A stretch of 34,723 nucleotides of DNA from Opitutales bacterium (GTDB lineage Bacteria; Verrucomicrobiota; Verrucomicrobiia; Opitutales; Seribacteraceae): positions 1 through 34,723 of the forward strand of contig JAQXCL010000155.1 of NCBI GenBank assembly GCA_029251885.1, read 5' to 3'. The notes beneath the pieces are model-generated. The model was given only the letters and a program-made list of their open reading frames with translations. It was not told where the DNA came from and made no database searches. The first letter of the stretch is position 1, and every line of letters starts with the position of its first letter. The position numbers and the translations under genes are program-made. Shown here piece after piece: positions 9,536 to 10,515 of this stretch.

Positions 9536-9561
9536 TGATCCTAAAACATAAAACCTTCGTT
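9536..9561 (+). promoter_or_regulatory. Candidate alternative-sigma promoter TGATC-N17-CGTT for the sigma-factor/lipid operon
   Basis: TGATC (9536-9540), N17, CGTT (9558-9561), 12 nt before ATG 9574. Matches the block at 3079-3104 without gaps. Confidence 0.6.
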
Positions 9562-9573
9562 CTATACATTGTT

Positions 9574-10515
9574 ATGGCACCATATAGTTACACGCAAACG
9601 AATGATTCTTCCGATCCAATCGGCCGTTTCATTTCCGACCGTTCACGCATGGCTCCCCCAACCAAGGAAGAGTACGATCAGTTATTTGGAGACTTTAATA
9701 AAGGTTCTGAGTCTGCAAAGCAGGAATTGATTGAGAGACATATCCGACTGGTTGCATCGATTGCCCTTAAATTCCGTCAGGTAAATGTCCCAATGGAGGA
9801 TGTAATGGCCGAAGGAATTCACGGACTTATTATTGCGATCGAAAAATTTGATCACACCAGGGGGATCAAACTTAGCACCTATGCTGCCTGGTGGATCCGT
9901 CAGCGCATCCAGCGATTTGTGAGTAAAATGGCCGAGGCGGTTTCTATCCCACATGATGTTTCTCAAGGTAAAAGAAAAGAAAACAATCTCCGTACAGAGC
10001 TTCAGATTTCCTTGGGTCGCGATCCCACCGACGACGAAGTCAAATCCGCATTGGATGACACCCGTAATTTGTCGAGTAGGGTAAAATATGCTCCTACCAG
10101 CACAATGTCCTTGGACGAACCTTTTTCCGATGATTCTGACCATTCACTCATCGATGTAATGACTGATGAAAAAGAAACCCAGCAATCATACCGTGAGGAA
10201 GGTTCTTTGGCAGATGATATTCGGGTAGCTTTGGGCTTTCTTGATCAAAGAGAGCGAAAGGTATTAGGTATGCGCTTCGGTCTAACCAAGGATAAAGAAT
10301 CCATGAAATTAGATGATATCGCAGAAATCCTTAATGTTTCCGGTGAGCGTGTTCGACAGTTAGAAGCACTCGGCTTGAGAAAGTTACGGGCCGTTGTGAT
10401 GAACAATGGGAAACTAGATTTTCGCAACCTAGACAAGTTAGTTGGTATCGAATTGCGTGGCAAAACCAAGATGAGTCCTTTACAACTCTCTCTAATCTTG
10501 GACAATGCCGCGTAA
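9574..10515 (+). CDS. RNA polymerase sigma-70 family factor, group 2/3 (RpoD/RpoH-like, non-ECF)
   Basis: RLVASIALKFRQVNVPMEDVMAEGIHGLIIAIEKFDHTRGIKLSTYAAWWIRQRIQRFV (region 2) and KLDDIAEILNVSGERVRQLEALGLRKLR (region 4.2). The 9535 ATG in the track overlaps the promoter block, so 9574 is preferred. Confidence 0.93.
   Translation: MAPYSYTQTNDSSDPIGRFISDRSRMAPPTKEEYDQLFGDFNKGSESAKQELIERHIRLVASIALKFRQVNVPMEDVMAEGIHGLIIAIEKFDHTRGIKLSTYAAWWIRQRIQRFVSKMAEAVSIPHDVSQGKRKENNLRTELQISLGRDPTDDEVKSALDDTRNLSSRVKYAPTSTMSLDEPFSDDSDHSLIDVMTDEKETQQSYREEGSLADDIRVALGFLDQRERKVLGMRFGLTKDKESMKLDDIAEILNVSGERVRQLEALGLRKLRAVVMNNGKLDFRNLDKLVGIELRGKTKMSPLQLSLILDNAA

What the first reader, a model, noticed from the sequence alone, without database searches (positions are those of the whole stretch)
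9536..10515. Group 2/3 (non-ECF) sigma factor heading a membrane-lipid remodelling operon, under the same promoter as the photolyase operon
The sigma gene (regions 2-4, not ECF) is 3 nt from a desaturase and starts a chain of lipid-modification genes. Its own upstream region carries the TGATC-N17-CGTT block. Two models follow: autoregulation by this sigma, or a cascade in which an unlinked ECF/anti-sigma pair drives this secondary sigma. The cascade would resemble RpoE controlling rpoH2 in R. sphaeroides, recalled from the literature. I see no ECF sigma or ChrR-like anti-sigma in the window.
Basis: partly seen in the sequence, partly recalled or inferred. Interest (0 to 1): 0.8.

Follow-up and report, generated by a model that had tools for sequence, protein, structure and literature searches.

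The report
Sigma-factor cascade for light-stress defence
In a family of marine Verrucomicrobiota, a small stress sigma factor just outside the window very probably switches on a second, lineage-specific sigma factor together with photolyase and membrane-lipid genes, paralleling the singlet-oxygen cascade known from Rhodobacter but built with a different second sigma and a different sensor protein.

Summary
The gene (true start 9574) is a complete non-ECF sigma, 3 nt before a desaturase, heading an eight-gene lipid operon; RpoD lies elsewhere. TGATCY-N16-CG stands directly upstream in 27 of 27 orthologues, over variable spacers. It recurs before the SDR-photolyase operon and, in relatives, before SOUL-glutathione peroxidase.

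The ECF is not unlinked: it sits 8-21 kb away in the same cluster in 15 relatives, and the window's contig appears to stop just short of it. In G055, of another family, the ECF, its partner and the motif (before GPx-photolyase) occur without this sigma. The motif has the geometry of mapped Shewanella RpoE2 (ECF11-type) promoters.

Differences from Rhodobacter: the second sigma is not RpoH; the putative anti-sigma is not ChrR (no cupin, no zinc ligands) but an RskA-like N-terminus joined to a degenerate histidine-kinase module; the ECF's own promoter lacks the motif.

Shown: anatomy, conservation, linkage. Inferred: that the ECF binds the motif, that its partner inhibits it, and the light/singlet-oxygen signal. 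The second sigma's targets are unknown. New variant of a known kind.

The parts
9536..9565 (+). ECF-type promoter of the sigma-lipid operon: -35 TGATCC (9536-9541), N16, -10 CGTTCTAT (9558-9565)
   Evidence: conserved in 27/27 orthologues; same geometry as mapped Shewanella RpoE2 promoters (PMC4336711)
9574..10515 (+). lineage-specific secondary (non-ECF, RpoD-type) sigma factor, 313 aa
10519..11430 (+). membrane fatty acid desaturase; no close homologue in the family genomes where the sigma was not found
11462..12700 (+). FAD-dependent amine-oxidase-like protein, UfaD-like by domain
   Evidence: UfaD described in PMC7380195
12697..13458 (+). DUF1365 protein, UfaO-like by domain
   Evidence: UfaO = DUF1365 in PMC7380195
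13459..14727 (+). cyclopropane fatty acid synthase family methyltransferase
14697..15248 (+). DUF2878 membrane protein
15245..16045 (+). DUF1295 membrane protein (steroid reductase / ICMT-like)
16042..17091 (+). second CFA-type methyltransferase, possible UfaM role
3079..3108 (+). second copy of the promoter: TGATCT-N16-CGTTTCAT, before the SDR-photolyase operon
3113..3823 (+). short-chain dehydrogenase, first gene of the photolyase operon
3823..5280 (+). photolyase/cryptochrome family protein
5292..6839 (+). photolyase-related protein (PF04244, DPRP)

Best explanation
The gene encodes a lineage-specific secondary sigma factor that is the second tier of a sigma cascade. An ECF sigma (185 aa, G000:C60:22087-22641) and a soluble 415-aa putative anti-sigma encoded just downstream lie about 17 kb upstream in the same photo-oxidative-stress cluster. 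When the anti-sigma releases it, the ECF sigma starts transcription at TGATCY-N16-CG[TA] promoters: before SDR-photolyase, before SOUL-glutathione peroxidase (seen in relatives; that stretch is missing from this assembly) and before this sigma gene with its membrane-lipid operon. The sigma made from the last transcript then redirects RNA polymerase to a further, unidentified gene set. Shown here: gene content, promoter conservation, linkage in relatives, and the ECF-partner-motif set occurring in G055 without the second sigma. Inferred: that this ECF reads the motif, that its partner inhibits it, and that light or singlet oxygen is the signal.
For: Motif in 27/27 sigma orthologues over variable spacers. 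Same motif before SDR-photolyase in all four sampled genera and before SOUL-GPx in many genomes. Same -35 and spacing as Shewanella RpoE2 promoters of phr, phrB/cfa and GPx operons (PMC4336711). ECF and sigma on one contig, same strand, 8-21 kb apart in 15 genomes. G055 has ECF, partner and a motif before GPx-photolyase but no second-sigma orthologue. The ECF's second-best PDB match is R. sphaeroides RpoE, 84.7 bits against 87.9 for SigK, and its recognition helix SLGTVKSRIRL matches RpoE's PLGTIKSRIRL. The second sigma's region 4.2 (VS[GA]ERVRQLE) is of the RpoD/RpoH kind. One near-complete ECF-lacking genome that keeps the photolyase (G021), and one 69%-complete genome (G016), show neither the motif nor the SDR there. 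The partner's N-terminus aligns with RskA-like anti-sigmas (83.7% probability). The sigmaE-to-RpoHII cascade is established in R. sphaeroides (PMC6852236).
Against: No activity data. The ECF is as close to SigK as to RpoE. Its own upstream region lacks the motif in the orthologues with readable upstream DNA, unlike autoregulated ECF11 systems. The ECF was not found in three same-genus genomes that keep sigma and motif (G002, G005, G007; 85-91% complete; their sigma contigs end before the expected place or are short). G055 is a single genome. The anti-sigma call rests on position and a weak profile match; Pfam and PDB sequence searches found nothing.
Confidence: 0.78

Rival explanations
1. Autoregulation: the secondary sigma itself recognises TGATC-N17-CGTT and drives its own operon and the photolyase operon.
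For: The motif stands before its own gene in every orthologue; no ECF was found in a few genomes that keep sigma and motif.
Against: G055 has the motif before GPx-photolyase with the ECF pair but without this sigma. The motif and spacing are those of ECF11-type promoters. Region 4.2 of this sigma is of the RpoD/RpoH type.
Confidence: 0.08
2. Another of the genome's ECF sigmas, not the clustered one, reads the motif; the clustered ECF has a different regulon.
For: The genome has several further ECF genes; the clustered ECF's own promoter lacks the motif.
Against: Conserved clustering of ECF with the motif-bearing operons across four genera and in a second family; RpoE-like recognition helix.
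Confidence: 0.1
3. The block is an activator or repressor site, not a sigma-specific promoter; transcription uses RpoD.
For: TGATC contains a palindromic GATC, and the start point was not mapped (direct reading of the sequence; no tool result favours this).
Against: Two separated, asymmetric elements at fixed 16-nt spacing, with the start codon typically 6-13 nt past CGTT, match the layout of mapped ECF promoters.
Confidence: 0.04

Closest known systems
R. sphaeroides sigmaE(RpoE)-ChrR to RpoHII singlet-oxygen cascade (ECF11)
   Same: ECF with neighbouring regulator; direct targets include photolyase, CFA/furan-lipid genes and a second sigma; the Shewanella counterpart uses TGATCC-N16-CGTA promoters (PMC6852236, PMC4336711)
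   Different: second sigma is a lineage-specific RpoD-type protein, not RpoH, and is cotranscribed with the lipid genes; no ChrR cupin anti-sigma; ECF promoter lacks the motif; ECF sequence as close to SigK
Shewanella oneidensis RpoE2-ChrR regulon
   Same: GPx, SDR with photolyase-related protein, and phrB/cfa operons under TGATCC-N16-CGTAAT
   Different: no secondary sigma among its listed targets; autoregulated; ChrR anti-sigma
M. tuberculosis SigK-RskA
   Same: closest PDB relative of the ECF by score; RskA-like N-terminus on the putative anti-sigma
   Different: the C-terminal part here is a soluble pseudo-histidine-kinase module with no predicted membrane helix; regulon differs
UfaM-UfaD-UfaO furan fatty acid pathway
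   Same: operon carries FAD amine-oxidase-like, DUF1365 and CFA-type methyltransferase genes (domains of UfaD, UfaO, UfaM)
   Different: adds a membrane desaturase, DUF2878, DUF1295 and a second methyltransferase; product unknown

Membership tests
ECF11 / RpoE-ChrR system | target promoters TGATCC-N16-CGTA | tested here: met
   TGATCY-N16-CG[TA] at three conserved operons; comparison promoters
ECF11 / RpoE-ChrR system | sigma belongs to ECF11 by sequence | tested here: inconclusive
   SigK 87.9 bits, RpoE 84.7 bits; 107.9 and 106.0 with the profile
ECF11 / RpoE-ChrR system | ChrR anti-sigma: zinc-binding anti-sigma domain plus cupin domain | tested here: not met
   no Cupin_7 match in the genome; partner lacks the zinc-ligand pattern and carries an HK-like C-terminus
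ECF11 / RpoE-ChrR system | autoregulation of the sigma-anti-sigma operon through the same motif | tested here: not met
   no motif upstream of the ECF in the orthologues with readable upstream DNA
ECF11 / RpoE-ChrR system | regulon of photolyase, CFA/furan-lipid and GPx genes | tested here: met
ECF11 / RpoE-ChrR system | activation by singlet oxygen | not testable with these tools
   needs experiment
RpoH family (RpoHII analogue) | RpoH model score and clustering with RpoH | tested here: not met
   119 bits against cut-off 323; RpoD and RpoS models score higher; does not group with E. coli RpoH, though long branches weaken the tree
RpoD primary sigma | the genome's sole or primary RpoD | tested here: not met
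   separate 697-aa RpoD on C34; 174 bits against cut-off 354
RpoS | RpoS equivalog score | tested here: not met
   174.5 bits against cut-off 378.7
ECF anti-sigma (RskA-like domain) for the 415-aa partner | N-terminal helical anti-sigma domain, encoded next to the ECF | tested here: inconclusive
   next gene in 10 clusters; three predicted N-terminal helices; hhalign 83.7% to an RskA-like anti-sigma, 0.1% for the window desaturase control; no Pfam or PDB sequence hit

The most novel reading that the evidence does not exclude
Marine Verrucomicrobiota assembled their own photo-oxidative sigma cascade: an ECF controlled by a previously undescribed soluble anti-sigma, in which the ChrR cupin is replaced by a catalytically dead histidine-kinase module (possibly sensing through invariant cysteines), feeds a secondary sigma found in no other lineage searched and cotranscribed with the membrane-lipid genes. 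That would be a second, independent instance of an ECF-to-second-sigma light-stress cascade.
Probability: 0.5. Interest if true: 0.75.

Novelty: new variant of a known kind. Interest (0 to 1): 0.62.

Why it matters
It extends an ECF11-like promoter code and core regulon (photolyase, methylated membrane lipids, GPx), reviewed as an alpha-/gamma-proteobacterial system, to sunlit-ocean Verrucomicrobiota, with a different second sigma and a different sensor protein. If confirmed, the tier 'ECF drives a general-type sigma' evolved at least twice for photo-oxidative stress, and the dead-kinase anti-sigma offers a new testable sensing mechanism. The promoter grammar is simple enough to test in a reporter strain.

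Tried and rejected
The bare motif in the window or genome is not significant alone (2 found, 1.39 expected; 27 in the genome); only comparison made it so. ChrR cupin search: none. Rfam over 2900-18900: none. The ECF promoter's own conserved element (TTGCGG...CGCTTA in genus g4) was sought in 60 genomes; no coherent regulon appeared. Pfam and PDB sequence searches of the partner: nothing; fold search gave only weak histidine-kinase/ChpT matches, best E 5.5e-3. Literature searches with these terms found no paper describing this in Verrucomicrobiota. Sigma tree: long branches, so only 'separate from RpoD, RpoH, RpoS and the general group-2 paralogue' is claimed. Co-absence of sigma and desaturase is weak evidence: some contigs end before the expected place.

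Full report
WHAT IS THERE. The window is contig C129 of a 2.18-Mb, 94% complete assembly; its closest named relatives are marine Opitutales (Verrucomicrobiota) MAGs and isolate-labelled genomes. At 9574-10515 lies a sigma-70 protein with regions 2, 3 (weak) and 4. The mechanical ORF starts at 9535, inside the promoter; 9574 is the likely start. It is not RpoD: RpoD is a 697-aa protein on C34, and the RpoD, RpoS and RpoH models score 174, 174 and 119 bits, all far below their cut-offs. In a tree it forms its own long, fully supported branch apart from RpoD, the genome's general group-2 paralogue, RpoS and RpoH; deeper placement is unsafe because of long branches. Orthologues at 49-99% identity were found only in its own family; the best matches elsewhere are about 36% identical and include RpoDs. 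Three nt downstream starts a desaturase, then an FAD amine oxidase, DUF1365, CFA synthase, DUF2878, DUF1295 and a second CFA-type enzyme. The domains match those described for UfaD, UfaO and UfaM of furan fatty acid synthesis (PMC7380195); the product here is unknown.

THE PROMOTER. The bare pattern TGATC-N16..18-CGTW is not rare in the window. Comparison makes the case: in 27 of 27 sigma orthologues whose upstream DNA is available, TGATCY-N16-CG stands immediately upstream of the start; positions T,G,A,T,C and C,G are invariant while most spacer columns carry under 0.5 bit. In genus g3 the -10 reads CGA in place of CGT. The -10 lies so close to the start codon that the mRNA should be almost leaderless (inference). 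The same element precedes the SDR-photolyase operon at 3079 and in relatives from all four genera, usually as CGA in g2-g4, and the SOUL-GPx operon in many genomes, which is missing from this assembly. Strict patterns give 28 hits in family genomes against 3 for the reversed pattern, and 20 against 2 for the CGA form. In the own genome a focused pattern gives five hits; the three outside the window lie inside genes. Two relatives also have it 36 nt before S-adenosylhomocysteinase, fitting an operon rich in SAM-dependent methyltransferases. Shewanella RpoE2 promoters, some with mapped starts, read TGATCC-N16-CGTAAT or CGTATT and drive GPx, photolyase-related/SDR and phrB/cfa operons (PMC4336711).

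WHO READS IT. The genome has no ChrR-type cupin, but an ECF gene on C60 (22087-22641) is followed by a 415-aa gene. In 15 relatives this ECF is on the same contig and strand as the sigma, 8-21 kb upstream, within a conserved island: ECF, 415-aa protein, SRPBCC, outer-membrane protein, renalase-like oxidoreductase, pirin, AlkB, SOUL, GPx, PQQ protein, UmuCD, SDR-photolyases, ligase, sigma, lipid operon. C60 ends at AlkB and the window begins at the PQQ protein, so the two contigs are very probably neighbours separated by SOUL-GPx. The ECF's best PDB relatives are SigK and R. sphaeroides RpoE; its recognition helix SLGTVKSRIRL is nearly RpoE's PLGTIKSRIRL. The second sigma's helix (VS[GA]ERVRQLE) is of the RpoD/RpoH type. 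The strongest discriminator is G055, of another family: it has the ECF (59%), the 415-aa protein (44%) and TGATCC-N16-CGA before a GPx-photolyase operon, but no orthologue of the second sigma. G021 (92% complete) and G016 (69% complete), where neither ECF nor sigma was found, keep the photolyase but lack both motif and SDR there. Where the ECF is present and the sigma not found within the family (G019, G020, G023), contigs end before the expected place, so nothing is concluded from them.

THE PUTATIVE ANTI-SIGMA. The 415-aa protein has no Pfam or PDB sequence match. Its first 60-70 residues form three predicted helices and align with RskA-like anti-sigmas encoded next to related ECFs (hhalign 83.7%, 35% identity over 62 columns; 0.1% for the window desaturase). 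The rest is homologous to stand-alone histidine-kinase-like proteins of other Opitutia, one with a HATPase_c match at 3e-5. Against these it has lost the HD[LVI]R phosphoacceptor box, the NNA N-box (LYN..NNA becomes LYCLANL) and the GxG box, so it is probably a dead kinase; no membrane helix is apparent. Cysteines 214, 267 and 291 (first-row numbering) are invariant or nearly so in the family and mostly absent from the stand-alone proteins: candidate redox sensors (inference).

MECHANISM. Most likely: stress releases the ECF from its partner; the ECF drives photolyase, GPx and sigma-lipid operons; the new sigma opens a second, unknown gene set. Steps shown: gene content, promoter conservation, linkage, separability of motif and second sigma. 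Steps inferred: ECF specificity, inhibition, signal, and everything downstream of the second sigma.

COMPARISON. In R. sphaeroides sigmaE activates about 13 genes, one being rpoHII, after release from ChrR (PMC6852236); that system was traced across alpha- and gamma-proteobacteria with a core regulon including furan-lipid genes. Here the wiring is the same in outline, but the second sigma is not RpoH and heads the lipid operon itself, the anti-sigma is not ChrR, and the ECF promoter lacks the motif. Two defining features of ECF11/ChrR were tested and not met, so it works like that system and is not filed as a member.

NOVELTY. New variant of a known kind; the anti-sigma architecture is the part that could prove newer.

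Noticed in passing
window 3029-3051: Imperfect inverted repeat TTGAAATATGTAACAGAATTCAA between umuD and the SDR gene, conserved across genera; a likely SOS (LexA) box for umuDC rather than part of the ECF promoter.
   Followed up: no
L071 about 10165-10226 and relatives: The divergent SRPBCC / outer-membrane protein intergenic region carries a conserved CAACC...CTTGAC-N17-TAA element in most genomes; a candidate target of the second sigma, untested.
   Followed up: partly
L181:1501-1537 and L305:26-62: In two genus-g4 genomes the motif stands 36 nt before S-adenosylhomocysteinase (next to SAM synthetase in one), linking the regulon to SAM turnover.
   Followed up: partly
L310:1319 and L302:20: Motif followed by a short similar stretch (ATGCTAAA.ACAAACAATGTT) with no long ORF in two genera; possibly a small RNA or small peptide, recalling the RpoE-dependent sRNA of R. 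sphaeroides.
   Followed up: no
L072-L091, just upstream of the ECF gene: The ECF gene's own upstream region has a different conserved element (AAAAAATC.ATTGCGG...CGCTTA in g4, TCGCTTATTCTCGACAA in g1); its reader is unknown.
   Followed up: partly
L283-L289: Stand-alone histidine-kinase-like proteins (HD[LVI]R box, NNA box, C-terminal WFHWP) form an Opitutia family with at best a weak HATPase_c match; one genome has two in tandem.
   Followed up: partly
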